Positions 1,691 through 32,299 of a stretch of DNA of 33,080 nt are shown in pieces. The notes below the pieces were generated by a model. That model saw only the letters and a list, made by a program, of their open reading frames with translations, was not told where the DNA came from and searched no databases. Source of the DNA: a virus. Each line of letters starts with the position of its first letter. The first letter of the stretch is position 1. The stretch lies in the IMG/VR virus record IMGVR_UViG_3300036852_000081, positions 1-33,080 of that record, one strand, 5' to 3'. A program made the translations under genes and the position numbers.

Positions 1691-1881
1691 AGGTCACCCC
1701 GGCCGAGCGGGTCGCCCTCGAAGCCGTGCTCCGCAACGGCACGGTGAAGGCCGCCGCGCACGCCCTCGGCAAGTCGCCGCGCACCGTCGTCAACCAGCTC
1801 GCCACGGCTAGGGCCCGTCTCGGCGTGCAGACGACGATCGAAGTCGTGCGCGTCGTGTTCATCGACCGGGACGCGGCATAG
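1687..1881 (+). CDS. small HTH protein between terminase and portal
   Basis: A 64-residue product starting at ATG 1687, overlapping the terminase stop by 4 nt (ATGA). The sequence VKAAAHALGKSPRTVVNQLATARARLG at about residues 19-45 is a LuxR or sigma region 4-like helix-turn-helix. It lacks any sensor or effector domain. It could regulate late genes or assist packaging as a DNA-binding partner of the terminase; neither can be shown here. The 50-nt gap before the portal suggests the portal has its own ribosome binding site. Confidence 0.75.
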   Translation: MKVTPAERVALEAVLRNGTVKAAAHALGKSPRTVVNQLATARARLGVQTTIEVVRVVFIDRDAA

Positions 1882-1931
1882 AAACATAAGGCGAATACCT
1901 TTCGCGGGCCTCGCGTCCCACGCTTCGGAGG

Positions 1932-4957: not shown

Positions 4958-4973
4958 ACCGCCTCCTGACATC

Positions 4974-5000
4974 GGGTGCGTCGTGTCTCGCGGCGCACCC
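4974..5000 (+). terminator. hairpin after the capsid gene
   Basis: Perfect 7-bp arms GGGTGCG (4974-4980) and CGCACCC (4994-5000) lie in the 72-nt gap between the capsid gene and the next gene. No T-run follows, so it could be a weak terminator, an mRNA-stabilising or processing hairpin, or chance in GC-rich DNA. Confidence 0.35.
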
Positions 5001-5029
5001 ACTCACCCTCCTGAAAGGAGAACCGCGCA

Positions 5030-5683
5030 ATGACCGTCCCGGCAACCCTCCCCGCCCCGCGCTCCAACCTCACGCAGTCCGGTATCTCGTCCTGGGTCGA
5101 TGATGTCGCCGCCGCGGACATCATCGTCGCCCTCGGCGACTTCACCGGCGGCGCGTCCGAGGATCTCTTCACCCTCACCTCACACGGCCTCGTCGATGGC
5201 GACGTGCTCTACTCCCTAGCGCAGTCGGCCATTGGCGCGATCACCGGCGGCGACCTCACCCGCTGCGTCGTCGAGCAGTTGGACGCCAACACGTTCCAGT
5301 GCGAGACCGACGCAGGCGCGACGATCGAGAACACCGCCGACGGCACGGTCGTCTTCCTGAAGACGCCCCACCCGCGGACTGCCGAAGCCGTCTACGGCCG
5401 GATCATCTACGGCGGCAACGACTTCACCGGCGGCACCGTCGAGGACATGGTGACCACGGCGAACTTCCAGGGCGTGCAGGACGGCGACACGCTCAAGCTC
5501 CTGTACAAGTCGGCCGCCGGGGTAGCGGCGGTCGCGGCTGACGCCACGGCCTACGTCAAGACGCCCGTCTCGACCGTCTCGGCGACGGGCTCCACCGCGT
5601 ACTTCCAGACCTCCCTTACCTCCGGCGGCGCGGTCGCTGACACGACGGCCGACGGGACCCTCGTCTTCCTGAAGACCAGCTAG
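5030..5683 (+). CDS. two-repeat beta protein after the capsid gene, possible decoration protein
   Basis: A 217-residue product with a good ribosome binding site (AAAGGAG before ATG 5030). It consists of a short N-terminal segment and two tandem copies of a beta-rich domain: residues 37-112 and 131-216 each begin DFTGG(A/T)xED, contain V(D/Q)DGD(V/T)L, and end TADGT(V/L)VFLKT. Position directly after the capsid gene and the all-beta look suggest a capsid decoration or head-fibre protein, but the family is not recognised. The duplication is internal and in frame. Confidence 0.7.
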   Translation: MTVPATLPAPRSNLTQSGISSWVDDVAAADIIVALGDFTGGASEDLFTLTSHGLVDGDVLYSLAQSAIGAITGGDLTRCVVEQLDANTFQCETDAGATIENTADGTVVFLKTPHPRTAEAVYGRIIYGGNDFTGGTVEDMVTTANFQGVQDGDTLKLLYKSAAGVAAVAADATAYVKTPVSTVSATGSTAYFQTSLTSGGAVADTTADGTLVFLKTS

Positions 5684-5689
5684 CGGCCT

Positions 5690-5723
5690 TGCGGGCGGGG
5701 GGCACAGGGGCCTCTCGCCCGCA
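5690..5723 (+). terminator. GC-rich hairpin after the possible decoration gene
   Basis: Perfect 8-bp arms TGCGGGCG (5690-5697) and CGCCCGCA (5716-5723) in the gap after the stop at 5683. It lacks a T-tract, so it may be a partial terminator or an RNA processing site rather than a strong intrinsic terminator. Confidence 0.35.
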
Positions 5724-5740
5724 TCCCCCTGGAGGCCCGG

Positions 5741-5836
5741 ATGTTCTGTAGCCGATGCGGCAAAGAGCCGCAGGGCGTTGCCGATGGCTCGAGCGCGCCG
5801 CCGTTCGTCGTCTACGTCTGGAAGCGGACGGCATGA
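5741..5836 (+). CDS. 31-residue half zinc-ribbon protein
   Basis: A very short gene, MFCSRCGKEPQGVADGSS and onward, with GGAGG at 5731-5735 correctly spaced before ATG 5741. It carries one CxxC knuckle at residues 3-6 and no second pair, so it could bind zinc only as a dimer or with a partner. Its stop overlaps the start of the next zinc-ribbon gene as ATGA, so the two may be translated as a pair or even derive from one gene. Function unknown. Confidence 0.55.
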   Translation: MFCSRCGKEPQGVADGSSAPPFVVYVWKRTA

Positions 5837-6090
5837 TCGAGTGCGGCTGGTGCGGCGGCGAGACAAAGCCGGGTCGGTGCTCCGCCTGCGGGCGCGAGCC
5901 GATCGTGCCGTGGACGCAGCGGGGATTGATGCCGCCGGCCGTGACCTCCTCCTCGCGCAACCGGCGGCTCCTCGCAGAAGCGGAGAAGGCGCTCCGAGAG
6001 GAGGGGCGCGAGCCGACCGTGGACCGGGTAGCGGAGCACCTCGGCATCGACCCCCGGACTGTCCGCAGATGGCGCGCGGTGTCCTCGTAA
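5833..6090 (+). CDS. zinc-ribbon plus HTH protein
   Basis: An 85-residue product starting at ATG 5833 (ATGA overlap with the previous gene). The N-terminus is a complete zinc ribbon: CGWCGGETKPGRCSACGRE gives CxxC and CxxC within the first 25 residues. The C-terminus, REPTVDRVAEHLGIDPRTVR at about 62-81, is a helix-turn-helix of the kind found in small phage regulators. It lies inside the head gene block and could regulate late transcription. The alternative upstream start at 5755 would add residues that have no coding character and would lose the coupling. Confidence 0.7.
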   Translation: MIECGWCGGETKPGRCSACGREPIVPWTQRGLMPPAVTSSSRNRRLLAEAEKALREEGREPTVDRVAEHLGIDPRTVRRWRAVSS

Positions 6091-6142
6091 TGCCCGCCCT
6101 GTGACCTAGCGATGTCCGCCCCATTCCGATGAAGGTGTAACC

Positions 6143-6784
6143 GTGGCAACTGCGACCGGAGCCTACGCGACCGCGGCGCTGTTCAAGGAGCTTGCCGGGA
6201 CCACCTCGGCCGAGGATGACACGCTCATCGGGAAGCTCTGCGACCGGACCAATCAGGTCCTCGAATCCGAGATGGGCCAGGTCGTCGCCCCGATCACCTC
6301 GGCCGCGTACCTGTACGACGGCAACGGCCTGAAGCACCTGTACCTCCCGCTTCCCCCTGCGTCCCTGCCGGGCATCGGCGGCATCCGGGCGGCATCGCTC
6401 GTAGAGGTCGCATCCGAGACAGGCGGGACGTTCGAGACGATCGCCTCGACCGACTACTTCCTCCGGGGCCATGCTCCGGGGCCCGGTAGCCCATATCGCT
6501 GGCTGGTGCTCTCTGACATCCCGGCAGGCTCGTACACAGTGTGGCCCGAGGGCTACGCCAACGTCCGGGTCACCGGCACCGCGAGCTGGACAGCCATTCC
6601 CGACGACCTGACGCAGCTCGCGCTCGCGGTCGTACAGCGGGCGTGGAACGCCCGGCAGACGGGCTATCAGAACGTCGACGGCGTGGACGAGCAGGGCCGG
6701 CCGATCGTTGGCCGCTTCCTCGCCCTGCCCGACTACCGGACGCTGAAGCGGTACAAGGTCAGCCAGGAGCAGGTGCGCGGATGA
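6143..6784 (+). CDS. head-tail connector protein (gp6-like adaptor)
   Basis: A 213-residue product from GTG 6143. The N-terminal half is helical (ATAALFKELAGTTSAEDDTL, IGKLCDRTNQVLESEMGQ), the middle is beta-rich with repeated LPLPPASLPGIG-type segments, and the C-terminus is helical (LTQLALAVVQRAWNARQTG). This layout and its position after the capsid genes fit the adaptor ring that docks below the portal. Assignment is by architecture and synteny rather than a diagnostic motif. It overlaps the next gene by 4 nt (ATGA at 6781). Confidence 0.7.
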   Translation: MATATGAYATAALFKELAGTTSAEDDTLIGKLCDRTNQVLESEMGQVVAPITSAAYLYDGNGLKHLYLPLPPASLPGIGGIRAASLVEVASETGGTFETIASTDYFLRGHAPGPGSPYRWLVLSDIPAGSYTVWPEGYANVRVTGTASWTAIPDDLTQLALAVVQRAWNARQTGYQNVDGVDEQGRPIVGRFLALPDYRTLKRYKVSQEQVRG

Positions 6785-7224
6785 CCGTGCGCGAAGTCGC
6801 CGGTGGTGGTGGGACGGTCACGGCCGCGGTCGCCCTGTCGGGACCGTTCTTCTCCGGTGACCCCGGCCAGAAAATGGCCGAGAACATCGAACGCCTGATG
6901 CAAGAGATCGCCGACCGCGGCGCCTCAGACGCGCGGCGTGGGTTCGCGTCAGGGTCGGGCAGCCGCCAGTTGGTGCGCGAGCTCGGCGATCGGGTGGCGG
7001 ATCACATCGTCGGCCGGGTCGTCGCCCGACCCTCGAAGGGCGGGCGGCGCTGGCGCGCCGCCGGCGTGGTGCAGGTCTACAACGAGGGCCTGAGCGGGCT
7101 ACAGGGCCGGAGCCTCATGGCCGCGGCGTCGATCCTCGAGGGCCGACAGAATGTCATCCGCAAGGTGAGCCGATCGATGGGCCAGGCGCTTCGGCGGATC
7201 GATCTGACCAGGGGCCTCGAGTGA
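6781..7224 (+). CDS. probable head closure or tail completion protein
   Basis: A 147-residue product beginning at ATG 6781 within the stop of the connector gene. It has a helical MAENIERLMQEIADRGASDA stretch and a basic C-terminal half (RRWRAAGVVQVYNEGLSG, then RQNVIRKVSRSMGQALRRID). By position, between the adaptor and the probable tail terminator, it should be the HK97 gp10-type neck protein. I see no diagnostic motif, so the role is inferred from gene order. Confidence 0.6.
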   Translation: MTVREVAGGGGTVTAAVALSGPFFSGDPGQKMAENIERLMQEIADRGASDARRGFASGSGSRQLVRELGDRVADHIVGRVVARPSKGGRRWRAAGVVQVYNEGLSGLQGRSLMAAASILEGRQNVIRKVSRSMGQALRRIDLTRGLE

Positions 7225-13011: not shown

Positions 13012-13551
13012 ATGGCCTACGTCACGCCGCCTACGTTTGTCGCGCTCGATCCCCTCGCTGCCGCGGAGCTCAACATCCTCGGCGACGATATCGTCTATCT
13101 CAAGGGCATCACTGACTCCGTGTCGGCGCAGGGCGTCCAGCTGAAGCGCACCTCCGACCAGACAATCACGACGGGTACCGAGACGCCCGTCACGTTCCAG
13201 GCCGAGAGCTTCGACTACGGCGGCTGGTGGAGCTCGGGAACCGACATCATCGTCCCCGCCGGCGCGATTCCGTCGGGCTACACCACGATCATCGTCATGG
13301 TCGTGATGCGCGCCCGGTTCGCCACGAACGGCACGGGCGTTCGCCGGATCCGGCCCTTGCTCAACGGGACCAACTTTGGCTCCATGACGGTCGGCGGAAT
13401 CAGCTCCGACCCGACCGATCTCACGATCACGGAGTTCGTCGAAGTCGAGGCCGGCGACGTGATCACGATGGGCGTCTACCACACGAAGGGCTCAAACCTC
13501 GCGCTCGAGGTCGGCAACTGCTCCGTCATGCGCTTCACGCTGGGTTCGTGA
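13012..13551 (+). CDS. tail-tip or fibre protein with jelly-roll-like C-terminus
   Basis: A 179-residue product with GGGGAG before ATG 13012. A short N-terminal anchor (LAAAELNILGDDIVYLKGIT) is followed by an all-beta domain with alternating hydrophobic strands (TTIIVMVVMRARFATNGTG, LTITEFVEVEAGDVITMGV), like the C1q/TNF-type jelly rolls of phage receptor-binding proteins. Placement among the tail-tip genes supports an adhesin role. The stop overlaps the next ATG by one base. Confidence 0.6.
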   Translation: MAYVTPPTFVALDPLAAAELNILGDDIVYLKGITDSVSAQGVQLKRTSDQTITTGTETPVTFQAESFDYGGWWSSGTDIIVPAGAIPSGYTTIIVMVVMRARFATNGTGVRRIRPLLNGTNFGSMTVGGISSDPTDLTITEFVEVEAGDVITMGVYHTKGSNLALEVGNCSVMRFTLGS

Positions 13552-14684
13552 TGGGACTCCGACCGAAGGAACGCATCCCCCAACACGACCACTCCGACCG
13601 CAATAGCGGCGGGCCGGTCGACGGCTCGACCACAAGCCGGACCCTCGGGCTGGCGGGTGGTGGCGGATCATCCGGTGCGTCGGACGGCGATCTCGACGCG
13701 CTCGACCTCTCCAAGTCCTCCATCAACGTCCGCCACCTCATCACGGGCGGCCCGCCGTTCAAGCTCATCGCGCACCGGGGCGACATCAACCCCGTTGACG
13801 GCTACCCGCAGGACACCCTCGAGGCGTACCGCCAGGCGATGATCCGCGGCGCGGACGGGCTCGAGTTCGGGGTCCAGCGCGACGCGGACGGGACGTGGCA
13901 GTGCATCCACGACACGACCGTCGACGCCACCACGGACGGTACCGGGGCCGTGTCATCCAAGACGACGGCGCAGATGGCCGCACTGAACATCGACGGCGGG
14001 CTGGGGTACGACGCGGGCCGGCACGGGACCAGCCTCAACGTCCCGACGCTCGACGATGCCCTAGCGGCGATGTTGCCCTACGACCCGATCATTCAGTTCG
14101 CACCCAAGGAAGGGACCCTGGAGTCATACACGGCGCTCGCCACCTATGTCCATGCCGCCGGGCTCGACGAACGCTCGATGATCGTCGGGCCCCTCGCGGG
14201 CGTGGCCGCGGCCATCCATGCAATCGCCCCGAACATCCTCACCGCGGACCCCAGCGATCCCGACGTGCTCATCCCGGAGCAGTCCACCGTGACATCCGCG
14301 GCGATCGTCCAGGGCTACGAGCCCGATTCGGTCTATCCGTACTTCACCGATGCCGATTGGGGCACGGACGAAACCGCCGATCTCACGAACCTTTGGACCT
14401 ACGGGTGTCGGGGTGCGCTGACGAATGATCTGCCCGAGGCGCTGCTGTGGCGCCATGAGGTGGTTGACGGCGCGACTGCCTCGACCACCGCGTTCACCCC
14501 GGCCGGGACGATCAGCGCCACGAACGTGCAGGACGCCATCGAGGAGGTCGCTGCCGATGCTGCTGCCGCAGCGACGGGCATCGGGCCGCTGCTCATCGCT
14601 TCCGACCACTCAAGCCCGATCGTGTTCGCGGACATCCTCCAGGCGTCCGACGGCGATGACTTCCTGTACGCATCGACCCCCTAG
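13551..14684 (+). CDS. tail protein with glycerophosphodiester phosphodiesterase (GDPD) domain
   Basis: A 377-residue product from ATG 13551. After a Gly/Ser-rich N-terminal linker, residues 70-330 match the GDPD fold: LIAHRGD (His75, Arg76) then PQDTLEAY in place of PENTLEAF, GLEFGVQRDADGTW (Glu105), and CIHDTT (His120). The C-terminus has ISATNVQDAIEEV at about 320-332, a linker common in tail fibres. GDPD enzymes hydrolyse glycerophosphodiesters, so this tail part could cleave teichoic acid-like polymers or lipid headgroups during adsorption. The second acidic metal ligand of the usual E-x-D is Gly107, and the E-x-K near 180-186 reads QFAPKE, so activity may be altered or lost and the domain may only bind. 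Confidence 0.8.
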   Translation: MGLRPKERIPQHDHSDRNSGGPVDGSTTSRTLGLAGGGGSSGASDGDLDALDLSKSSINVRHLITGGPPFKLIAHRGDINPVDGYPQDTLEAYRQAMIRGADGLEFGVQRDADGTWQCIHDTTVDATTDGTGAVSSKTTAQMAALNIDGGLGYDAGRHGTSLNVPTLDDALAAMLPYDPIIQFAPKEGTLESYTALATYVHAAGLDERSMIVGPLAGVAAAIHAIAPNILTADPSDPDVLIPEQSTVTSAAIVQGYEPDSVYPYFTDADWGTDETADLTNLWTYGCRGALTNDLPEALLWRHEVVDGATASTTAFTPAGTISATNVQDAIEEVAADAAAAATGIGPLLIASDHSSPIVFADILQASDGDDFLYASTP

Positions 14685-14692
14685 GAGACGAC

Positions 14693-15388
14693 ATGGCCGC
14701 GATCGAGAACGAGAACATCTACGGGCTGATGATCCGCGAATCCGCCAACGACGGCTCGGACTTCACGAACGCCGACGCCGACTACCGCAAGCTATTCCTT
14801 GGCGAGACGGGCGGCCTCTTCACGCGCGACTCGGCGGGCACCATCCACAACATCGCGGGCGGCGTCGGTACGGCGTTCCCGGCGACCCCCGGTACGAACA
14901 GCCGCTTCTTTCGCACCGATCTCGGCATGGAGTTCTACTACGACGGCACCCGGTGGCTGACGACGACGCTGTACCACCTGGTCGCCACGCTTGACAACGG
15001 GACTGCGACGGCCGCCTACGCGGGACCGTCCGCGACGCTTGCCGGTGTCATCCTCGCCGCTGTGCCGGGGCTGGTGGGTGGATCCGATCTATGGCTCCAC
15101 AACCTAACGACGCAGTTCCTTGTCGCGGGCGGGACGGCGCTGGACGGGTCGAACAACTGGGTCAACATCTTTGGGAAGCGGCCCACCGGCAACACGACCA
15201 CAACGATCATCACCGTCACGGTCAACTCAGGCTCGTCGTCCGTGTGGCGCACCGATACGCAGTCCATCGGAGCGTTGCTGAACAACGGGACGACGCACTA
15301 CATGTTTTCCTGGGGCATCACCAAGACCGGGACGCCGGGGCCGCTGTGGGCGTCGTTCGACCTGACCTATAGGATCGTTGCGACGTGA
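14693..15388 (+). CDS. tail fibre-like protein
   Basis: A 231-residue product with AGGAG before ATG 14693. The N-terminal 90 residues (YRKLFLGETGGLFTRDSAG, then FFRTDLGMEFYYDGTRW) resemble the repeated beta units of phage fibre shafts. The C-terminal 130 residues form a Thr/Gly-rich beta domain ending in LWASFDLTYRIVAT. Last gene of the rightward structural block, a usual place for receptor-binding genes. It meets the leftward membrane-protein gene tail to tail with one base between the stops. Confidence 0.55.
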   Translation: MAAIENENIYGLMIRESANDGSDFTNADADYRKLFLGETGGLFTRDSAGTIHNIAGGVGTAFPATPGTNSRFFRTDLGMEFYYDGTRWLTTTLYHLVATLDNGTATAAYAGPSATLAGVILAAVPGLVGGSDLWLHNLTTQFLVAGGTALDGSNNWVNIFGKRPTGNTTTTIITVTVNSGSSSVWRTDTQSIGALLNNGTTHYMFSWGITKTGTPGPLWASFDLTYRIVAT

Positions 15389-15389
15389 C

Positions 15390-16556
15390 CTACTGGCCGG
15401 GCCAGTAGACCGACCACCGCGCATCCGGGGCGACGGGCACCACACACGGGGCAGGACCCCCGACGCACCCGCTCGCCCACCCCACTGTCGCCCGCGGCGG
15501 TAGGCGGAGGTTGGATACGAACACCAGCACGAGGACGGCGGTGACGCCGAGGCGAGCGATGGCGATCGGCCGAGCTCGGGCCGGGGCGGCGAGCAGTGCA
15601 GCCCCGATCAGCGCCGTGGCGATCCAGAAGTACCGTGGACCGTTGCCGTCGTTGAGGAACGCGGCGGTCGGCGCGAAGGCGGCGCTGAGGGCCACGACCG
15701 GGACGACGGCTGCGGCATATCCGATGGCGAAGCGCATCCGCCACGACAGCCCAGCCGTGGCGAGGACGAGCATCGCCACGAACAGCAACGCGAGCGGCAG
15801 CCCGAGGTGCGTCGCCCGCTCGAGTATGACCTGGGGCAACAGCAGGAAATCGGGCGGTACCGCGCCGATCCGCTGAGTGCCGGCCACGGTGACGAGTTGC
15901 ACGGCTGCGCCGGCAAGGACGGTCACGAGCAGCGGCCAGTCCCGCTCCCGCCACCATCGGGCGACGAACAGCGGCGCGAACAGCACGCCCACGGGTCCGG
16001 TGAGCATCGCCAGCCCGACGCCGGGAAGCTCCCACCGCGGCCCACGCGAGGCGATAGTCAGGGCAAGCAGCCACGCTCCGACCGTCCACTGGATATTCGC
16101 AGGCGTCCCGAGCAGCAGTCCGGTCGACGGCAATAACACGACGATCGCTGCGAGGACGAGCCGGCGCCGCCGGTCGGGGAGCAGCGGAGCCATCCGGTCG
16201 GACGCGAGGAAGCCCGCGAGCCCGGACAGCAGCCCGAGGGACACGAGCGTCCCAGCGAGCGGCGCCCACTGAGCCGGGAGCCATGTCATCGCCGCAACCA
16301 GGGCACGGACACCAACGATGAGGTAGCCGGAGTAGGGCGCGAAGATCGACCCGCCCGCGAGCGCGTCCGAGTAGAAGATCCCATCGTCGGCCCAGAACTC
16401 GGCGCGCGTCACTGACTCCGGCTGGCGCAGGACGAGCACCGCGAATGCAACCAGGACTACCAGCCAACCGCCTCGGCCTTCGGGTCGGGGCGTCTTTTCT
16501 GATTCTCGTGGATAACTCCGCAGACCATCCACAGCCCTGCGCCAGTACGTTGTCAC
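15390..16556 (-). CDS. multi-pass membrane protein, GT-C glycosyltransferase-like (candidate lysogenic conversion gene)
   Basis: A 388-residue product from a GTG at 16556. It has a cytoplasmic basic N-terminus, a first membrane segment at about 31-43, and roughly nine more hydrophobic segments through residue 360. Between the first segments lies EFWADDGIFYSDAL (Asp57, Asp58), where GT-C enzymes carry their catalytic acidic residues in the first outer loop, and TPANIQW at 151-157 is a second conserved-looking patch. GT-C enzymes move sugars from polyprenyl-phosphate donors onto surface polymers. It lies downstream of the repressor on the same strand, so it should be expressed in lysogens. It is not a standard structural or lysis gene. 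Serotype conversion or superinfection exclusion is inference. Confidence 0.75.
   Translation of the reverse strand: MTTYWRRAVDGLRSYPRESEKTPRPEGRGGWLVVLVAFAVLVLRQPESVTRAEFWADDGIFYSDALAGGSIFAPYSGYLIVGVRALVAAMTWLPAQWAPLAGTLVSLGLLSGLAGFLASDRMAPLLPDRRRRLVLAAIVVLLPSTGLLLGTPANIQWTVGAWLLALTIASRGPRWELPGVGLAMLTGPVGVLFAPLFVARWWRERDWPLLVTVLAGAAVQLVTVAGTQRIGAVPPDFLLLPQVILERATHLGLPLALLFVAMLVLATAGLSWRMRFAIGYAAAVVPVVALSAAFAPTAAFLNDGNGPRYFWIATALIGAALLAAPARARPIAIARLGVTAVLVLVFVSNLRLPPRATVGWASGCVGGPAPCVVPVAPDARWSVYWPGQ
15391..15407. terminator. inverted repeat at the convergent gene ends
   Basis: TACTGGCC and GGCCAGTA flank a single central G exactly where the rightward tail block and the leftward lysogeny operon converge. 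The centre is too tight for a full-length hairpin, but part of the stem could form and act on both strands. It also encodes the last residues of the membrane protein, so it may simply be coding sequence. Confidence 0.25.
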
Positions 16557-16612
16557 GGCAGTCGGCGATCATCCTTCGCTCGATGGCCGGGACCCTCGGG
16601 CAGCTCATCCAT
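16553..16612 (-). CDS. possible 19-residue leader ORF before the membrane-protein gene
   Basis: On the minus strand ATG at 16612 opens MDELPEGPGHRAKDDRRLP, and its TGA overlaps the GTG start of the membrane-protein gene as GTGA, as in the early genes. No ribosome binding site is evident. It may couple translation of the membrane protein, or be chance. Confidence 0.25.
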   Translation of the reverse strand: MDELPEGPGHRAKDDRRLP

Positions 16613-16665
16613 TCTGTCGCCTGCTCGGGGGTTCGCCGTGGTCACTGATCCCGCCATACTCGCGT

Positions 16666-17205
16666 TCATTGATGAGGACTTTCGCCGAGCGGTTCGGGAA
16701 GCTGCTCGTGTGGCAACCCTTCGTCGTCTTGGTCTAGTCCCGCTTCCCGGAGCGCATCCGCGACCCCTTCCCGGATCGCGTCGCCGGCCAAGGATTCGAG
16801 TCTCAGGGCTAGTGCAGTAATCGCGTCCGTGTGGCGGTCGAGCGCGGCCGCTTGGATGAGGAGAGCCGCGGCTACCTGATCGGGCGTCTCCGTGGCTCCT
16901 GGAGCGTCAGGGAACAGCGGGATCGGGTCAAGCGTGACCCCCTTCTCCCGCGCCCACTCCGGGTAGAGCTTCACGAGCGCCCGCCAAAGCGGACGGCTCA
17001 TGTTCTTCCGCCCATCCGCCTCAGCCTTGCGGATCGTCGCGGCGTCATAGCGGCCTAGCCTCGCGACCACCTGTTCCGGGGACACGCTGAGGCGGTCGGC
17101 TCTGGACTCATAAGCCCAAGCACCGAGGGGTCCGCGCTCTTCTGGAGTCTTCACGCCGGGCACGTTCCCACGTTTTCCCACATTTGGGGCGACTTGTATA
17201 CGCAT
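16666..17205 (-). CDS. immunity repressor-like HTH protein
   Basis: A 179-residue product from ATG 17205, divergent from the Cro-like gene. Residues about 25-85 hold an XRE-type HTH: a first helix in GAWAYESRADRLSV, then PEQVVARLGRYDAATIRKAE with the likely recognition helix at the end. The C-terminal half is helical and acidic (ALDRHTDAITALALRLESLA) and may dimerise. No LexA/CI-type protease dyad is visible, so induction may not follow RecA-stimulated self-cleavage. In-frame GTG codons downstream of ATG 17205 are alternative starts. Two CCCAC repeats lie inside its first codons, suggesting autoregulation. It would maintain lysogeny by repressing the rightward promoter. Confidence 0.7.
   Translation of the reverse strand: MRIQVAPNVGKRGNVPGVKTPEERGPLGAWAYESRADRLSVSPEQVVARLGRYDAATIRKAEADGRKNMSRPLWRALVKLYPEWAREKGVTLDPIPLFPDAPGATETPDQVAAALLIQAAALDRHTDAITALALRLESLAGDAIREGVADALREAGLDQDDEGLPHEQLPEPLGESPHQ
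17167..17188. promoter_or_regulatory. tandem CCCAC repeats inside the repressor start (possible operators)
   Basis: CCCACGTTTT (17167-17176) is followed directly by CCCACATTTG (17177-17186), a 10-bp spaced tandem repeat, and the second copy continues as CCCACATTTGGG, which is partly palindromic. The repeats share the CCCAC core with the perfect palindrome in the rightward promoter, so the same regulator may bind all of them. Confidence 0.45.
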
Positions 17206-17220
17206 TAGTGCGCGTGGGGG

Positions 17221-17250
17221 TTGACAGGCACGTGTCCCACGTGGGATAGT
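17221..17250 (+). promoter_or_regulatory. rightward early promoter with operator palindrome
   Basis: TTGACA at 17221-17226 is a perfect -35. GATAGT at 17245-17250 matches the -10 at four of six positions with an 18-bp spacer. Between them lies CCCACGTGGG (17236-17245), a perfect 10-bp palindrome, so a bound repressor would block polymerase. A further CCCACG lies at 17253-17258. The expected transcription start falls only a few bases before ATG 17261, so the first message may be nearly leaderless. Confidence 0.7.
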
Positions 17251-17260
17251 TCCCCACGAG

Positions 17261-17467
17261 ATGAACGACAACCCCTCTGGCCTCGCGCTAAAGATCGAAC
17301 GAGTCACCCGTCGCGCCAAGGCGAACGCCCTGGCAGAGGCGATGGGCGTCTCCAAGTCCCGCGTAGCCGCCATTGAGCGAGAGCAGTTCCCCAGCGCTGA
17401 GACGGTCGCGCGCTACCGTGCGGCCCTCGACACGTGCGCCCCTTCTCCCACGTCGGAGGCTGCGTGA
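17261..17467 (+). CDS. Cro-like XRE-family HTH regulator
   Basis: A 68-residue product, the first rightward early gene. LALKIERVTRRAKANALAEA and MGVSKSRVAAIEREQFPSAE form the first helices and the HTH of an XRE-type DNA-binding domain, and there is almost nothing else in the protein, as in Cro. It starts about 10 bases after the -10 hexamer with no clear ribosome binding site, so translation may be leaderless. It probably represses the leftward repressor operon. Its stop overlaps the HNH start as TGATG. A CCCACGT motif sits near its 3' end (17447-17453). Confidence 0.75.
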   Translation: MNDNPSGLALKIERVTRRAKANALAEAMGVSKSRVAAIEREQFPSAETVARYRAALDTCAPSPTSEAA

Positions 17468-18135
17468 TGCCCGCCCAACGCGTGTACGCGCCCGACATTC
17501 TCGCGGCCGTCCGGTCCGGCAAGACCGGCACCGAGGTCGCACTTGCCTTCGGGATCACGCGTGAGCGCGTCCGGCAGATTTGGACCCGGGATACGGGTCT
17601 GGGCCTTCCTTCGTGGGCCAAGGTTCGCCCCTGCGAGTGCGGCTATTCCTTCACCCACTCGAACCACAAGGCGCATCGGGCCTCGTCGGTCCACCGGGAA
17701 TGGCTGCTCCAGAAGCACGTGGCTCTTTTCTGGACCCACGCGGACCGATCGGGTGAATGTTGGATCTGGACCGGCGTCCGCAGCCCGCAGGGCTACGGCC
17801 AGGGCGGACGCTTCGTCAAGGGAAGTGGCGACTACGCCCACCGTGCCGCGTACATCCTCGCCAAGGGTCCGATCCCGAAGGGGCTGACCCTCGATCACCT
17901 GTGCCGAAACCGAGCCTGCGTGAACCCGGCCCACCTGGAGGCCGTGACTCACCGCGAGAACATCATGCGAAGCCCTATTGCGGTAGCGGCGATCAACGCT
18001 CGCAAGACCCACTGCAAGTACGGGCATCCGTTCTCTGTCGAGAACACCTATCGCGCTCCGGCCGGCGGCCGTAGTTGCCGCACGTGTGGACGACAGCGAG
18101 AGCGGGCTCGGCGTCAGACGAAGGCGGCCGCGTGA
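17467..18135 (+). CDS. HNH homing-type endonuclease with N-terminal HTH
   Basis: A 222-residue product starting at ATG 17467. Residues 20-42 (TGTEVALAFGITRERVRQIW) form a sigma region 4-like HTH for DNA recognition. Residues 98-165 form the HNH nuclease: CWIWTG, AHRAAYILAKG, LTLDHLCRNRACVNPAHLEA with Asp143-His144 and Asn153/His156 as the metal and catalytic positions. The C-terminus adds a zinc-binding pattern (HCKYGHPF, then CRTCGRQ). Such free-standing HNH enzymes are often selfish genes in phages, though some help DNA processing. It is embedded in the early operon through 1-nt overlaps at both ends. Confidence 0.88.
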   Translation: MPAQRVYAPDILAAVRSGKTGTEVALAFGITRERVRQIWTRDTGLGLPSWAKVRPCECGYSFTHSNHKAHRASSVHREWLLQKHVALFWTHADRSGECWIWTGVRSPQGYGQGGRFVKGSGDYAHRAAYILAKGPIPKGLTLDHLCRNRACVNPAHLEAVTHRENIMRSPIAVAAINARKTHCKYGHPFSVENTYRAPAGGRSCRTCGRQRERARRQTKAAA

Positions 18136-18368
18136 TGGTCGCCGAGCGCATCGACCGCCGCTCCCGTGGCGAGCTGGTCCGCCTGGAGTCCCGCGTCCGC
18201 CGTGACGAGACGGTCAGGACGCTGACCCACATCCGTACCCACGCCCGCCACATCCACCTCGCCGTCGTTGCCGACCGGCCCGACCTCGCCCTGCACTCCG
18301 CCGGGGCGATCGTCTCGATGGCCGACCGGCGGCTGCGCCAGCTCGGAGGTTCCGATGACGCTGCTTAG
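18135..18368 (+). CDS. small helical protein, unknown
   Basis: A 77-residue product from ATG 18135, overlapping the HNH stop by one base; GTG 18132 is an alternative start. It is rich in Arg and His with one long helical stretch (RDETVRTLTHIRTHARHIHL). No family recognised. Its 3' end overlaps the next gene by 14 nt, and the next gene's ribosome binding site (GGAGG) lies inside it. Confidence 0.6.
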   Translation: MVAERIDRRSRGELVRLESRVRRDETVRTLTHIRTHARHIHLAVVADRPDLALHSAGAIVSMADRRLRQLGGSDDAA

Positions 18369-18552
18369 TCGCATCCACGCCAACCAGTGCGCCGTCGTGG
18401 GTTGCTCGCGGGCGCGGGCGCAGGACGCGCAGGTCTGCGCCACCTGCCTCGGCGACCTGTGGGCGAATCGCCTCGACCGCCAGCCGGACGGCTCGTACAC
18501 GAAGCGCCGGACGTTCGTGGCGCGCGACGAGACCGGGAGGCTGGCGGCGTGA
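18355..18552 (+). CDS. small zinc-binding protein
   Basis: A 65-residue product with GGAGG eight bases before ATG 18355. CAVVGCSRARAQDAQVCATC gives C-x4-C and C-x2-C, a treble-clef or zinc-ribbon arrangement, followed by a basic C-terminus. Function unknown; probably a nucleic-acid or protein-binding host-takeover factor, which is inference from its early operon position. Confidence 0.65.
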   Translation: MTLLSRIHANQCAVVGCSRARAQDAQVCATCLGDLWANRLDRQPDGSYTKRRTFVARDETGRLAA

Positions 18553-18719
18553 GCATCTTCTTCGGCCTCGTCCTTGGAGTGCTGTGGGTCACGCTGGGGC
18601 TTGTCACGGGATGGTTCGGCCTAACACCCCCCGCGAGTTACATCGTCGGCTTCGTCGGCGGGCTTCTCTGCACCAGCGCGTTTGGCCCAATCCTCGCCAA
18701 CCTGTCGGCGCGACGATGA
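18549..18719 (+). CDS. small two-segment membrane protein
   Basis: A 56-residue product from GTG 18549 (GTGA overlap). Two hydrophobic segments, GLVLGVLWVTLGLVTGWFGL and YIVGFVGGLLCTSAFGPILA, and a basic tail ARR. It could sit in the inner membrane as an early superinfection or host-takeover factor. No family recognised. Confidence 0.6.
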   Translation: MSIFFGLVLGVLWVTLGLVTGWFGLTPPASYIVGFVGGLLCTSAFGPILANLSARR

Positions 18720-18823
18720 TCGCCCGGCTCGCGGTCCTCTCGTTCCTCGTGTTCTTCTGGGCGTTCGTGGCCTTCGTCGCCGTGAACGCCGGGACGATCG
18801 CCTCGATGGTGTTCCGGCCGTGA
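18716..18823 (+). CDS. 35-residue single-pass membrane protein
   Basis: Starts at ATG 18716 inside the previous stop (ATGA). MIARLAVLSFLVFFWAFVAF continues hydrophobic to about residue 30: one membrane helix and almost nothing else. The 4-nt overlaps on both sides support it as a real gene. Function unknown. Confidence 0.5.
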   Translation: MIARLAVLSFLVFFWAFVAFVAVNAGTIASMVFRP

Positions 18824-19170
18824 ACTCGGGAGTGACGCGGGCCGCCCGGTACGTCGTGCTGGCAAGCGAGGCGGTGCGCGATGCACGCAACGGGTCCGGT
18901 CATCCCGGCGAACCGCATAACCGCGACCTGCACTTTGCGACCGGCGGGCCGGTCGAGGTGTTCGACATCTCGGGCGACTGTTCGGCATGTGGCGGCGCGG
19001 AATACGGCTGGGACGACGTGCTGAATGCTGCGATGGGCGACCTCCGCGAAGCCCTCGGCATGAACCGCCGCCCGTGGGAGGTCAACACCGTGGCGCGCGA
19101 GACACGGGTCACCCTCGATGAGATGGCGACGGCGCGCGGCTGGACCCACCCGAAGGCGAGCACCGCATGA
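18820..19170 (+). CDS. hypothetical protein with a CxxC knuckle
   Basis: A 116-residue product from GTG 18820 (GTGA overlap). The N-terminal 40 residues are followed by DISGDCSACGGAEYGWDDVL, one CxxC in a turn, then a helical C-terminal half (LNAAMGDLREALGMNRRPWE, then VTLDEMATARGW). No family recognised. Good GC-rich third-position codon use supports coding. Confidence 0.6.
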   Translation: MNSGVTRAARYVVLASEAVRDARNGSGHPGEPHNRDLHFATGGPVEVFDISGDCSACGGAEYGWDDVLNAAMGDLREALGMNRRPWEVNTVARETRVTLDEMATARGWTHPKASTA

Positions 19171-19322
19171 CCGCCGGCGACACAACCCTCGACGCCCTCG
19201 TCCTCCTGGCCGTCACAGGCGGGCTCCTGCTGCCCCTCGTGGTCCTCGCCTGGCCCCTTGAGGAGACAGAGCGCGGCCGCCGGTTCGCTGATTGGCTGAG
19301 CGAACGGATCTTCCCGCGATGA
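19167..19322 (+). CDS. 51-residue single-pass membrane protein
   Basis: ATG 19167 overlaps the previous stop (ATGA). One hydrophobic segment, ALVLLAVTGGLLLPLVVLAW, is followed by an acidic then basic tail (PLEETERGRRFADWLSERIF). The next start at 19319 again lies in the stop codon. Role unknown. Confidence 0.5.
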   Translation: MTAGDTTLDALVLLAVTGGLLLPLVVLAWPLEETERGRRFADWLSERIFPR

Positions 19323-19393
19323 GCCTGTGTACGTGTGGCGCGCAGATGGTTCCCCATCGTCGCGTACCGAACGTCTGCCCGGTGGCGAAGTGA
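19319..19393 (+). CDS. 24-residue cysteine-containing micro-protein
   Basis: MSLCTCGAQMVPHRRVPNVC then PVAK. It has C-x-C and a third Cys with a His between, a possible minimal zinc knuckle. It is coupled at both ends by 4-nt overlaps (ATGA at 19319, GTGA at 19390), the main argument for translation. Confidence 0.4.
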   Translation: MSLCTCGAQMVPHRRVPNVCPVAK

Positions 19394-19734
19394 GCGCGCG
19401 CCGGATGCACGGCTATGTCGAGGTGACGATCGCCGCAGCCCTCCTGCTCGACGACAACACCCTCCTCCACGGCGACATGGCCGACGTGACGCTCGCGTTC
19501 GGTCTGCCGACGAGACAGCCGGGTCGGGAACTGACCGAGGCCGAGTCGAAGGAGACGCTGCGACTCAACCTCGGTCGGATAGCGGCCGTCATCGAGACGG
19601 GGCTGCTCGCGAACGGGGCGGAGCACATGGGCCAGATCGAGGAACCGATGACCGAACACAGTCATGAGGTCGGCTATACGCGCTCCGATCCAGTCACGGT
19701 TCGGGTTGAGTTCCGCGGTGAGGCCCGAGCGTGA
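19390..19734 (+). CDS. hypothetical protein
   Basis: A 114-residue product from GTG 19390 (GTGA overlap); ATG 19405 is an alternative. It alternates short strands and helices: YVEVTIAAALLLDDNTLLHG, a helix ELTEAESKETLRLNLGRIAA, and a C-terminal strand DPVTVRVEFRGEARA. No family recognised. It looks like a soluble cytoplasmic early protein. Confidence 0.6.
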   Translation: MSARRMHGYVEVTIAAALLLDDNTLLHGDMADVTLAFGLPTRQPGRELTEAESKETLRLNLGRIAAVIETGLLANGAEHMGQIEEPMTEHSHEVGYTRSDPVTVRVEFRGEARA

Positions 19735-25232: not shown

Positions 25233-26296
25233 GCGTGGGCCTTCGGGCGTGGCACCAGACCTGCGAGTTCTATGACGACGGGCAGCGGATCATGCCGGAC
25301 GACGGCGTTGGGCTGGCGGGCCGGGAGGGAGGAGTGGAACCGATGACCGAATGGCGACACGCTCCGGTGCCATCCCCGAGCCGCGATGACGAGCGATGGG
25401 TCTGGTGCGTCCGATGCAAGGCGTCATGGCCCTGCGACGCCGAACAGCAACGTCTCCGAGCCGAAGCCGCGCAGCGTGCCCTCGATGACGTGAGGGCGAA
25501 GGTGGAGAAGCTGCGCGTGTTGGTCGGGCCGCTCGACCCGGACTGCGCGAAGGCGCGGGCCGTAACGCTCGATGCGGTGCTCGCGCTCTTGGACCTCGCC
25601 CTCCCCAGCGAACCAGTGAGCACCCCGAAGCCGCCGGAACTGCGATGGCCCGACATGAGCGCCTCCTATCCCGGCAATGCCCCCAGCGAACCAGTGAGCA
25701 CGGACGGGGGGCCACGGATCGACGTGGCACGCCTGACCGAAGCGATGGGCGTCATGCTCGTCACGGAGGACGGCGAACTCGTGGAGTCATTGGGCGAGTC
25801 AGCCGCCCGCATCGCCGCCGAATACGACCGGCTCGCATCACAGACACCCAGCGAACCAGTGAGCACGGACGGGGAGACGGAGCACGTCGCCGGTTGGCCC
25901 TGGCATCGGGAGACGGTGGGGCACGCCGACATCTGGGAGATTGCCGCGAAGATCGCTGGCTCTCTCGCCATCCCGCTGGCCGAGGGCTTGCCGCCGAACA
26001 CGGACGCGACATGGATCGTGAACGCCGATAACCGGATCGTCGCATTCACCGGCAACGGACCCCGGCAAACCGACAACGCCGAGCTCATCATCGAAGCGGT
26101 CTCCCGCCTCCCCCTCCCTGACGGATTACCAAGCACCGAGCCGCGGGAACAGCAGATCGAGCGGATCGCGGCGGTGTTGGCAGATCACGGGATCGTCCAG
26201 CACGATAACGAAGTCCAGTACAGCCTAGACCTGCCGCTTGCCGCAGCCCTCTACGACGCCGGCCTCCGAGCAAGCACCGAGCCGCCGCGCCCGTGA
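25229..26296 (+). CDS. hypothetical protein with three PSEPVST repeats
   Basis: A 355-residue product from GTG 25229 (GTGA); ATG 25343 has an equally strong GGAGG-rich site and would give a 317-residue form. Parts: a CVRCKASWPC zinc-like knuckle near 60-69, a helical stretch with DDVRAKVEKLRVLVGPLD, and then three linkers ending in PSEPVST that separate short helical modules (DVARLTEAMGVMLVTEDGEL; HADIWEIAAKIAGSLAIPLA; REQQIERIAAVLADHGIVQH). It looks like a chain of small domains assembled by in-frame repeat recombination. Function unknown. Confidence 0.6.
   Translation: MSVGLRAWHQTCEFYDDGQRIMPDDGVGLAGREGGVEPMTEWRHAPVPSPSRDDERWVWCVRCKASWPCDAEQQRLRAEAAQRALDDVRAKVEKLRVLVGPLDPDCAKARAVTLDAVLALLDLALPSEPVSTPKPPELRWPDMSASYPGNAPSEPVSTDGGPRIDVARLTEAMGVMLVTEDGELVESLGESAARIAAEYDRLASQTPSEPVSTDGETEHVAGWPWHRETVGHADIWEIAAKIAGSLAIPLAEGLPPNTDATWIVNADNRIVAFTGNGPRQTDNAELIIEAVSRLPLPDGLPSTEPREQQIERIAAVLADHGIVQHDNEVQYSLDLPLAAALYDAGLRASTEPPRP
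25603..25874 (+). repeat. three in-frame copies of a 21-28 bp repeat
   Basis: CCCAGCGAACCAGTGAGCAC occurs at 25604-25623, 25682-25701 and 25847-25866. The second and third copies extend with CGGACGGGG. All are in the same frame and encode PSEPVST(DG). Spacings (78 and 165 nt) are multiples of three. Confidence 0.9.
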
Positions 26297-26646
26297 CCGG
26301 ATATCTCACGCTCCTCGAAGTCGCCGAGCTCCTGCGCGTGTCAACGGGCACCGTCCGCAACCTCGCCCGCCGCGCCGGCCTCCCCCTGATCCGCGTCTCC
26401 CCCCGGCGCTATCTTGTCTCCGAGGAGGGCCTTGCCGAATGGCTGGACGGGCGCGTCGTGAGTGGGGTTCCGGCTCGTGCTACCAGACCAAGCGAGGGTA
26501 CTGGCGAGTCAGCGTCCCGCTTCCCTCGGATGGCGGACGACGACGCCAGGAGTGGCAGTACCGGACGGAGGCGGCCGCCCGTCGCCAGCTCGAAGCGGTC
26601 CAACGTCGTCTCGCTCGCGGCCTCCCGGTCGACGAAGGCCGGATGA
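26293..26646 (+). CDS. Xis-like MerR-type HTH protein overlapping the integrase
   Basis: From GTG 26293 (GTGA overlap with the previous gene). Residues 1-55 are a complete excisionase-type HTH: YLTLLEVAELLRVSTGTVRN, then LPLIRVSPRRYLVSEEGLAE. The frame stays open to 26646 (117 residues), overlapping the integrase by 208 nt, but residues after about 58 look like out-of-frame sequence. It should bind attP and direct excision versus integration. Whether the natural product is this HTH alone, a tail-extended form, or a frameshifted fusion to the integrase cannot be settled here. Confidence 0.7.
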   Translation: MTGYLTLLEVAELLRVSTGTVRNLARRAGLPLIRVSPRRYLVSEEGLAEWLDGRVVSGVPARATRPSEGTGESASRFPRMADDDARSGSTGRRRPPVASSKRSNVVSLAASRSTKAG

Positions 26647-27461
26647 CCGTGGCCGAGTACGCCGTCGAATGGCTCGCGCAGCTCCAGGTGAAGCCGTCCA
26701 CCAAGGCGATGTACGGCTCCATCGTCCGGCACCAGCTCGGCCACCTCGCGGACATGCGCCTGACCCGCGTCGCCGGCCCCGACATCCGGGCGATCCTGCA
26801 TGAGCGGGAGCGGGAGGGCTATTCCGGCCGGACCCGCCGCGCCGTCCTCGATGTCCTGCGGATGATCTTCCGCATGGCCGAGCACGACGGCATCGTGGAG
26901 CGCAACCCCGCCGCGACCGTCACGGCTCCCCGCATCGACGCCAAGGAGCCGGTGCATCTCACCGCCGAACAGGCCAGGAGGTTCCTCGATGCCGCCAAAG
27001 GTGACGCGCTCTACAGCCTCTACGCGGTTGCTCTGGGAACTGGTCTGCGACGGGGTGAACTGTTGGCCCTCACATGGCGAGACGTTGCTGATGACTACGG
27101 CCATGTTGTGGTTCGAAGGGGAAAAACCGCCGCCGCTGCCCGAACTGTCCCCGTCCCACGGTTCGCTTCGCTGGCGCTTCGCGGGCTACCACGAGCCCCC
27201 GGCCCCATCTGGCCCTACTCCCCCAGCTACGTCACCCGACACGTCGGCGTGATCTGCAAACGGGCCGGCGTGCCCCGGATCACCTTCCACGGGTTGAGGC
27301 ACTCAGCGGCCAGCATCCTCCTGGCGGAAGGCGTCGATCCCCTCACCATCCGGGGCATCCTGGGCCACGTCTCGGTTTCCACCACGGCCCACTACGCCCG
27401 GTCGGAGGAGGCCGGTCGGCGTGAGGCTTTGGAGCGGCTTGGAAAGGCGGTCAGCGCGTGA
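26439..27461 (+). CDS. int: tyrosine integrase
   Basis: A 340-residue site-specific recombinase from ATG 26439. An N-terminal arm-binding region (GSGSCYQTKRGYWRVSVPLP) and a core-binding SAM-like domain (MTVAEYAVEWLAQLQVKPST) precede the catalytic domain. The active site is complete: Arg204 in TGLRRGELLALTWRDV, His284-x-x-Arg287 in HGLRHSAAS, His310 in ILGHVSVSTTAHYAR and the nucleophile Tyr319. It inserts the phage into the host tRNA-Val gene and, with the Xis-like protein, excises it. The attP lies 178 bp downstream. Confidence 0.93.
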   Translation: MAGRARREWGSGSCYQTKRGYWRVSVPLPSDGGRRRQEWQYRTEAAARRQLEAVQRRLARGLPVDEGRMTVAEYAVEWLAQLQVKPSTKAMYGSIVRHQLGHLADMRLTRVAGPDIRAILHEREREGYSGRTRRAVLDVLRMIFRMAEHDGIVERNPAATVTAPRIDAKEPVHLTAEQARRFLDAAKGDALYSLYAVALGTGLRRGELLALTWRDVADDYGHVVVRRGKTAAAARTVPVPRFASLALRGLPRAPGPIWPYSPSYVTRHVGVICKRAGVPRITFHGLRHSAASILLAEGVDPLTIRGILGHVSVSTTAHYARSEEAGRREALERLGKAVSA

Positions 27462-31982: not shown

Positions 31983-31993
31983 GGAGAACGACG

Positions 31994-32299
31994 ATGTTTC
32001 TCGGACGCCCGGTCAATCTGTGGGTCGGCCTCATCGGTGGCGGCGTGAGCACGGCGATCTCGATCATCGGCGCAACGCAGACCCCGGAGATCGCGCAGCA
32101 GTGGGCGATCATCCTCGGCGCCGTCGGCGGCTTCCTCGGCGTCCTGGTGGCGTTCCTCGCCGGCCAGCCGCCGACCCTCGCTCCCGGCGACACGTTCCAC
32201 ATCTCGACGCCCGCGGGCCAGCCCAACACCGTCGGCGTCGTGACCCCGCCCGAGCCTGTATCCGTGTCGTCGACGATTGGGGAGACGGTGGAGCCATGA
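31994..32299 (+). CDS. probable holin
   Basis: A 101-residue product with GGAG before ATG 31994. Two hydrophobic segments (LWVGLIGGGVSTAISIIGAT, WAIILGAVGGFLGVLVAFLA) connected by a short polar turn, and a Pro-rich soluble tail. Size, topology and position right after the endolysin fit a class II holin that would open the inner membrane. Confidence 0.72.
   Translation: MFLGRPVNLWVGLIGGGVSTAISIIGATQTPEIAQQWAIILGAVGGFLGVLVAFLAGQPPTLAPGDTFHISTPAGQPNTVGVVTPPEPVSVSSTIGETVEP

What the first reader, a model, noticed from the sequence alone, without database searches (positions are those of the whole stretch)
15390..17205. Repressor and a GT-C-like membrane protein form a leftward lysogeny operon
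The only leftward genes are a repressor-like HTH protein and, downstream, a ten-segment membrane protein with acidic residues in its first outer loop as in GT-C glycosyltransferases. Co-expression with immunity means it is made in lysogens. That is the position of lysogenic conversion genes; surface glycan change or exclusion of related phages are the obvious roles. I do not recognise a described phage family for it.
Basis: partly seen in the sequence, partly recalled or inferred. Interest (0 to 1): 0.7.

Follow-up and report, generated by a model that had tools for sequence, protein, structure and literature searches.

The report
Lone sugar-transfer gene beside prophage repressor
A temperate soil-type phage carries, next to its likely repressor gene, a single membrane enzyme gene related to the phage genes that change the surface sugars of Shigella, so its lysogens probably alter their own surface and may thereby shut out other phages.

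Summary
The window is a 33-kb temperate phage record with an integrase. Its only two credible leftward genes are an HTH-type protein (16666-17205, weak domain match) and, behind it, a ~10-segment membrane protein (15390-16556) with EFWADDG in its first loop. The membrane protein is a GT-C glycosyltransferase by two routes. It is homologous over its full length to the serotype-specific Gtr enzymes of gtrA-gtrB-gtr(type) conversion cassettes (PHROG 19534; GtrV of phage SfV; profile-profile E 3e-34; hydropathy-preserving shuffles fail). A predicted model (moderate confidence) matches almost only GT-C enzymes. What differs: it stands alone, with no gtrA or gtrB in the record, so it would need host-made lipid-linked sugar. 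In 13 of 22 related phage records the same slot between tail genes and the divergent switch holds leftward cargo; in 11 of 13 it is clearly membrane or lipoprotein, including two Imm_superinfect proteins and one unrelated GT-C. This supports lysogenic conversion or exclusion as the slot's role. Expression, sugar, acceptor, host and phenotype remain untested.

The parts
15390..16556 (-). Stand-alone Gtr(type)-family GT-C glycosyltransferase, 388 aa, about 10 transmembrane segments; exact start uncertain
   Evidence: ORF; PHROG 19534 E 3.1e-10; hhalign of A3 with the GtrV family E 3.1e-34; fold; shuffle controls
16380..16400 (-). Codons of EFWADDG (residues 53-59), first outer loop; D58 is the proposed catalytic base
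   Evidence: W55, A56 and D58 invariant in the 10-row alignment A6, and the matching W, A and D columns in the 7-row A4; the comparison with PimE D58 at the apex of JM1 comes from PMC12041525, passages
16666..17205 (-). HTH-type DNA-binding protein, likely immunity repressor; the true start may be 17154 or 17085
   Evidence: HTH_31 E 0.023, below cut-off; position divergent from a Cro-like HTH; start alternatives
17221..17250 (+). Promoter-like site TTGACA-18-GATAGT of the rightward operon
   Evidence: 1 found, 0.3 expected in shuffles
17235..17246 (.). Perfect palindrome TCCCACGTGGGA, candidate operator overlapping the rightward promoter-like site
   Evidence: only exact copy in the window; matches with up to 2 mismatches are no more frequent than in shuffles. 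Half-site TCCCACGT again at 17166-17173
17261..17467 (+). Cro-like HTH gene, first rightward gene
   Evidence: HTH_3 E 1.9e-5, above cut-off; homologues at the same place in G005 and G007
15390..15408 (.). Perfect inverted repeat CTACTGGCC/GGCCAGTAG at the convergent stops, candidate two-way terminator
   Evidence: read directly; folded (z about -1.8 and -1.5)
14693..15388 (+). Last rightward tail-region gene, convergent with the GT-C gene
   Evidence: ORF; gene; no Pfam match
26238..27461 (+). Integrase frame: shows the phage is temperate
   Evidence: phrog_1 integrase E 5.8e-67

Best explanation
The leftward pair is the prophage-side operon of a temperate phage: an HTH regulator, then a lysogenic-conversion gene. 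The conversion gene encodes a GT-C glycosyltransferase of the phage Gtr(type) family. In the lysogen it would sit in the cell membrane, take a sugar from a polyprenyl-phosphate donor that the host makes and flips, and add it to a surface polymer outside the membrane, using the conserved Asp58 of its first outer loop as base. The changed surface would most likely reduce adsorption by the same or related phages. Shown by computation: gene positions, family membership by sequence, GT-C fold at moderate confidence, absence of gtrA and gtrB in the record, and membrane or exclusion cargo at the same slot in relatives. Inferred: co-transcription, lysogenic expression, catalysis, host supply of donor, and exclusion.
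For: PHROG 19534 'glucosyltransferase' (moron class) matches with E 3.1e-10. The closest members are third genes of gtrA-gtrB-gtrX cassettes in prophage-like contigs L222-L226 and GtrV/SfX enzymes. The window family aligns to the GtrV family over its full length: hhalign prob 99.9, E 3.1e-34; BLASTP with GtrV 22% over 174 aa, E 2e-7. An HMM of that family scores the window protein 57.3 bits against at most 2.9 bits for 1000 shuffles and 8.4 bits for 1000 block shuffles. AlphaFold2 with 10 rows: pLDDT 61.7, pTM 0.66. Foldseek's first 12 PDB matches are GT-C chains or translocon entries containing one. VIA-align ranks 1-39 are GT-C enzymes, complexes containing one, or PIG-U/GPI-transamidase, Z 9.9 to 5.6. 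Two actinobacterial chromosomal homologues (34-35% over the full length) lie beside GT2 polyprenyl-sugar-synthase-like genes. Slot survey: cargo in 13 of 22 records; in 11 of those 13 it has a membrane or signal segment against 142 of 897 genes overall; other leftward genes 3 of 39. Two slot proteins are Imm_superinfect (PF14373) and one is an unrelated GT-C (Alg6_Alg8 PF03155).
Against: No gtrA or GT2 in the record, so the donor supply is assumed. The HTH match is weak. The model is only moderately confident and no Foldseek E is below 0.001. There is no transcription evidence, and 109 bases separate the two genes. No other phage record carries a close relative, and none of 32 relatives' records has the family. 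In G014 and G029 of the slot survey no credible leftward membrane gene was called; of the 13 records with cargo, G003 falls just under the hydropathy threshold and G023 passes only with an earlier start.
Confidence: 0.72

Rival explanations
1. It is a GT-C enzyme made in lysogens, but the benefit is a changed host surface (antigenicity, grazing, stress, biofilm) rather than phage exclusion.
For: The same sequence evidence; chromosomal relatives sit in or near glycan loci without phages.
Against: The same slot in relatives holds Imm_superinfect proteins twice and lipoproteins four times (G002, G005, G007, G023), and P22 gtrABC blocks adsorption (PMC10883804, passages).
Confidence: 0.3
2. [quoted passage not shown]
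For: PIG-U chains also match the model; small membrane exclusion proteins fill the same slot in relatives.
Against: W55, A56 and D58 of the acidic motif are kept in all 10 rows of A6, and no loss of the motif is seen.
Confidence: 0.1
3. The HTH protein is not the immunity repressor, and the membrane gene is expressed from a promoter of its own or in the lytic phase.
For: Weak HTH score, 109-base gap, uncertain starts.
Against: Leftward orientation against all lytic genes, divergence from a Cro-like gene with a candidate operator, no promoter-like site on the minus strand in the scanned 5.5 kb, and the same layout in relatives.
Confidence: 0.15
4. It is an ordinary transporter or another polytopic membrane protein.
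For: Ten hydrophobic segments alone would allow it.
Against: Full-length homology to Gtr enzymes and GT-C matches on top of the fold lists.
Confidence: 0.03

Closest known systems
Gtr(type) serotype-specific glucosyltransferases of phage gtrABC cassettes (GtrV of SfV, GtrX of SfX, P22 GtrC as a functional parallel)
   Same: PHROG 19534 family for GtrV/SfX-like proteins; full-length profile alignment; WA(D/E)D motif after segment 1; in a prophage, convergent with tail genes as gtrV is in SfV.
   Different: No gtrA or gtrB in the record; 19-25% identity to nine cassette third genes; behind an HTH gene instead of in its own cassette; host probably not enteric.
Actinobacterial and Chloroflexota chromosomal GT-C proteins of the same family (L220, L221, L258-L267, L271)
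   Same: 34-35% identity for L220 and L221 with conserved N- and C-terminal motifs.
   Different: Chromosomal; 5 of 16 chromosomal loci have a gtrB-like GT2 detected nearby.
GT-C lipid-linked glycosyltransferases of known structure (STT3/PglB, PimE, AftB, AftD, EmbB, ArnT)
   Same: Predicted fold; acid residue after helix 1 at the start of a juxtamembrane helix.
   Different: No detectable sequence similarity to any PDB chain.
Prophage exclusion genes next to a repressor: Ltp lipoprotein of TP-J34, Imm family
   Same: Leftward lysogeny-module position; [quoted passage not shown] relatives of this phage carry lipoproteins or Imm_superinfect proteins in the slot.
   Different: Those are small non-enzymatic membrane or surface proteins; this one looks like an enzyme.
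Prophage TarP (wall teichoic acid glycosylation, Staphylococcus aureus)
   Same: Prophage gene that glycosylates a Gram-positive surface polymer (PMC9650247, seen in search listing only).
   Different: TarP is, from recall, a soluble cytoplasmic nucleotide-sugar enzyme, not GT-C.

Membership tests
GT-C superfamily | 7-13 transmembrane helices | tested here: met
   10 hydrophobic segments; helical model
GT-C superfamily | Conserved acidic residue in the outer loop after helix 1 | tested here: met
   EFWADDG at 53-59; D58 invariant in A6 (10 rows), matching column invariant in A4 (7 rows). The side of the membrane is inferred
GT-C superfamily | GT-C fold | tested here: met
   VIA-align ranks 1-39 are GT-C, GT-C-containing complexes or PIG-U, Z 9.9-5.6, next unrelated row Z 5.4. 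Caveat: pLDDT 61.7 and Foldseek E 0.01-0.23
GT-C superfamily | Transfer of sugar from a lipid-linked donor | not testable with these tools
   needs biochemistry
Gtr(type) enzyme (PHROG 19534) | Sequence homology to the third gene of gtr cassettes | tested here: met
gtrABC serotype-conversion cassette | gtrA flippase and gtrB lipid-sugar synthase next to it | tested here: not met
   no PF04138 or PF00535 in the 33-kb record, both families detected in control genomes. The record may be a fragment
gtrABC serotype-conversion cassette | Changes O-antigen serotype | not testable with these tools
   host and acceptor unknown
Lysogenic-conversion gene in the repressor operon | Same strand as and directly behind the repressor | tested here: inconclusive
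   position met; repressor identity rests on a weak HTH match
Lysogenic-conversion gene in the repressor operon | Expressed in the lysogen | not testable with these tools
   no RNA data
Imm superinfection immunity protein (PF14373) | Pfam match | tested here: not met
   no Pfam family at E <= 1; relatives G017 and G024 do match

The most novel reading that the evidence does not exclude
Phages of this group share an exchangeable 'surface slot' behind the repressor in which lysogeny-expressed membrane genes are swapped. Two unrelated GT-C enzymes have entered it separately. The window's one acts alone: a one-gene version of the gtrABC serotype-conversion cassette that uses polyprenyl-phosphate sugars and flippases of its (probably high-GC, Gram-positive) host to decorate the envelope polymer that the phage's own tail, with its glycerophosphodiesterase domain, binds or cuts, thereby masking the receptor.
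Probability: 0.25. Interest if true: 0.7.

Novelty: new variant of a known kind. Interest (0 to 1): 0.5.

Why it matters
Serotype-converting Gtr enzymes are known from phages of Gram-negative enteric bacteria as part of three-gene cassettes. A single-gene relative in the repressor operon of a high-GC soil-type phage would show that the strategy reaches other envelopes and can lean on the host's own lipid-sugar supply. The slot comparison also gives a simple rule for finding exclusion and surface-conversion genes in this phage group: look at the leftward gene between the last tail gene and the divergent switch.

Tried and rejected
Single-sequence AlphaFold2 gave a useless model (pLDDT 47); no fold search was run on it. 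Single-protein scans of viral contigs and genome contigs found only a copy of the same phage or nothing. tblastn of the membrane protein found nothing in 50,697 phage records at E <= 10 or in 72,556 plasmids. A codon-level motif scan (FWA[DE]DG) gave 82 stretches, none a multi-pass homologue. Foldseek against predicted viral structures gave nothing interpretable. The tree of 13 rows has long branches that meet (window, L220, L221), so I draw no conclusion on where the gene came from. Comparing the HTH protein with relatives' proteins gave no significant match. Host assignment failed: the four MAG contigs with related terminases are labelled Gammaproteobacteria, Solirubrobacteraceae, Chloroflexi and Gemmatimonadaceae.

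Slot survey, rows not counted: 22 records were called; 13 had a leftward cargo gene at the slot. The other nine were G008, G012, G014, G016, G020, G022, G029, G030 and G031. G016 repeats part of G017, and I judged several others to be fragments that do not reach the slot; G014 and G029 pass the tail genes without a credible leftward membrane gene and may be real exceptions. Two non-membrane genes of G002 (235 and 302 aa), the integrase of G024 and a doubtful 64-aa ORF of G025 also lie leftward in the slot. G016 and G020 were left out of the 897-gene background.

Full report
What is there. The window is one 33,080-base virus record. It has terminase, portal and head genes, a tape-measure protein, a tail-region protein with a partial glycerophosphodiesterase domain (PF03009, E 1.9e-12), RecE/RecT, a match to phage integrases (phrog_1, E 5.8e-67) and a DNA methyltransferase. 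A codon-usage gene call puts everything rightward except 15390-16556 and 16666-17205, and one 30-aa ORF that I regard as spurious. The membrane ORF has the coding pattern of GC by codon position, and the overlapping leftward ORF does not. Contig L002 carries the region at 100% identity, and L007 carries 1458-7165 at 99.98%.

The switch region. The HTH protein scores only E 0.023 with HTH_31, below Pfam's cut-off. The first rightward gene, 17261-17467, is a clear HTH_3 protein (E 1.9e-5) with homologues at the same place in relatives G005 and G007. Between them lies the only promoter-like site found in 14000-19500 (TTGACA-18-GATAGT, 17221-17250; 0.3 expected), with a perfect palindrome TCCCACGTGGGA inside it. 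Looser matches to that palindrome are not enriched, so its operator role is a guess. The GT-C gene ends two bases past the stop of the convergent tail gene, where CTACTGGCC/GGCCAGTAG could form a two-way terminator.

What the membrane protein is. Pfam, NCBIfam and PDB sequence searches find nothing, and neither does tblastn of 50,697 phage records. PHROG 19534, 'glucosyltransferase', matches residues 33-222 with E 3.1e-10. A search of 396 genomes of the phylum of a Solirubrobacteraceae MAG found two chromosomal relatives (E 2.5e-13 and 4.1e-6) that align over the full length at 34-35%. With these as a profile, viral contigs gave five prophage-like contigs. In each the relative is the third gene of a gtrA-gtrB-gtrX cassette: the neighbours tested in L223 and L225 are GtrA_DPMS_TM and Glycos_transf_2 by Pfam, and those of L223 are the PHROG GtrA/GtrB O-antigen-conversion families. 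The nearest named phage proteins to that group are GtrV of SfV (40.5%) and the SfX glucosyltransferase (33.1%). In SfV, gtrV also ends convergent with tail genes.

How sure is the homology. hhalign of the window family (A3) against nine phage Gtr proteins including GtrV (A7) gives probability 99.9 and E 3.1e-34 across the whole length. The window protein alone against GtrV gives 22% over 174 residues, E 2e-7. An HMM of A7 gives the window protein 57.3 bits; the best of 1000 shuffles has 2.9 bits, the best of 1000 shuffles that keep local composition 8.4 bits, and the best unrelated called gene of the relatives 4.3 bits. In the ten-row alignment A6, 25 columns are invariant, among them W55, A56, D58, P74, G77, Y78, N154, R308 and Y309.

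Fold. With A6, AlphaFold2 gives pLDDT 61.7 and pTM 0.66. Foldseek's first 12 PDB rows are STT3-type oligosaccharyltransferase chains or a translocon entry containing one, PglB, PimE and AftB, though E is 0.01-0.23. VIA-align's ranks 1-39 are GT-C enzymes or complexes that contain one (oligosaccharyltransferase, AglB, PglB, Pmt4, ALG12, ALG3, AftD, DPY19, EmbB, PimE, AftB, ArnT) and PIG-U/GPI-transamidase chains, Z 9.9 to 5.6; apart from one further GT-C-type row, the next row, an unrelated design, has Z 5.4. For helical models Z below 13 is not proof alone, but the consistency of the list together with the sequence homology makes GT-C likely. In PimE the catalytic Asp58 sits at the tip of the first juxtamembrane helix, and D58A/D58N abolish activity (PMC12041525, passages). 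D58 of this protein directly precedes the short helix 60-66 of the model. PMC11127046 (passages) describes the Gtr* proteins as GT-C enzymes of three-component systems with undecaprenyl-phosphate glucose, and PMC3259042 (passages) reports shared acidic residues in periplasmic loop 2 of the Gtr proteins.

What is missing. The record has no GtrA and no GT2 protein (both families were found in control genomes), and my HMMs of gtrA and gtrB also found none in the window. By those HMMs 8 of 9 phage cassette loci have gtrB next to the GT-C; the ninth, L239, has its GT-C gene about 2.1 kb from the edge of the stretch. Of 16 chromosomal loci, 5 have a gtrB-like GT2 detected nearby. A GT-C of this family without a dedicated donor gene is therefore common in chromosomes. 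The simplest reading is that the phage enzyme borrows host polyprenyl-phosphate sugar; this is inference.

The slot. Relatives were found through the terminase. I called genes in 22 records. Thirteen have a leftward cargo gene between the tail genes and a rightward gene run: G002, G003, G005, G006, G007, G011, G017, G021, G023, G024, G025, G026, G027. Eleven of these have a further leftward gene upstream in the HTH position, and 9 of those 11 give a Pfam HTH match at E <= 0.1; G007 and G026 give none, and G011 and G027 have no such gene called. In 11 of 13 records the cargo has a hydrophobic segment over threshold. G003 falls just under it, and G023 needs an earlier start that reveals a lipoprotein signal. 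The background is 142 of 897 called genes; the binomial tail for 11 of 13 is 9e-8. I picked the cargo genes by position and orientation after seeing the maps, so the tail is a guide, not a formal test. Other leftward genes of these records have such a segment in 3 of 39 cases. The cargo differs: Imm_superinfect PF14373 in G017 (E 3.8e-11) and G024 (5.7e-15), a SHOCT protein in G006, a DUF4352 protein in G003, lipoproteins in G002, G005, G007 and G023, and in G025 a 461-aa, ten-segment protein that passes Pfam's cut-off for Alg6_Alg8, another GT-C family (E 5e-6). That protein does not match PHROG 19534, and none of the 32 records searched has that family. So two apparently separate GT-C genes occupy this slot.

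Mechanism. In P22 the prophage-expressed GtrABC proteins alter the O-antigen and block adsorption (PMC10883804, passages); receptor modification is listed as an exclusion route (PMC11436027, passages). The Ltp lipoprotein of TP-J34 lies in a leftward lysogeny module and is made in the prophage (PMC3952083, passages). By analogy, the window's gene would be expressed with the regulator in the lysogen and glycosylate a surface polymer outside the membrane. The tail-region GDPD domain hints that a glycerophosphate polymer may be the receptor, but nothing here shows it.

Novelty. The enzyme belongs to a known family and the strategy is known, so this is not a new kind of system. What I did not find in print is a stand-alone member in a repressor operon outside enteric phages. 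My searches were and 122 of the open-access library, which misses most subscription journals. I rate it a new variant of a known kind, interest 0.5.

Noticed in passing
window 13551-14684 (+): Tail-region protein with a partial glycerophosphodiester phosphodiesterase domain (PF03009, E 1.9e-12), similar to phage phosphodiesterase and tail-fibre families; may act on glycerophosphate surface polymers.
   Followed up: partly
L108:17283-18668 (+) (record G025): A second, sequence-unrelated GT-C protein (Alg6_Alg8) in the same slot of a related phage.
   Followed up: partly
record G025 contig 31687-32022 (-), and G002 (567-aa protein): GT2-type sequence among the head genes of G025 by PF00535; a glycosyltransferase-looking protein (by eye only) among the head genes of G002. 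Possibly virion glycosylation.
   Followed up: no
window 15390-15408: Perfect 9-bp inverted repeat exactly at the convergent stops, without a T-run; candidate two-way terminator.
   Followed up: partly
L002, L007: Two contigs of another IMG/VR dataset (3300036859) are 100% and 99.98% identical fragments of this phage.
   Followed up: yes
record G002, slot: A 302-aa protein with a weak ParB-HTH match (E 7e-4) and a 235-aa protein lie between the HTH protein and two lipoproteins.
   Followed up: no
Chloroflexi genomes (phylum of G037): The GT-C family is found in 9 of 251 genomes, three copies in one of them (G618), more often than in the other two phyla tried (3 of 396 and 3 of 299; the first of these with a smaller profile).
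   Followed up: partly
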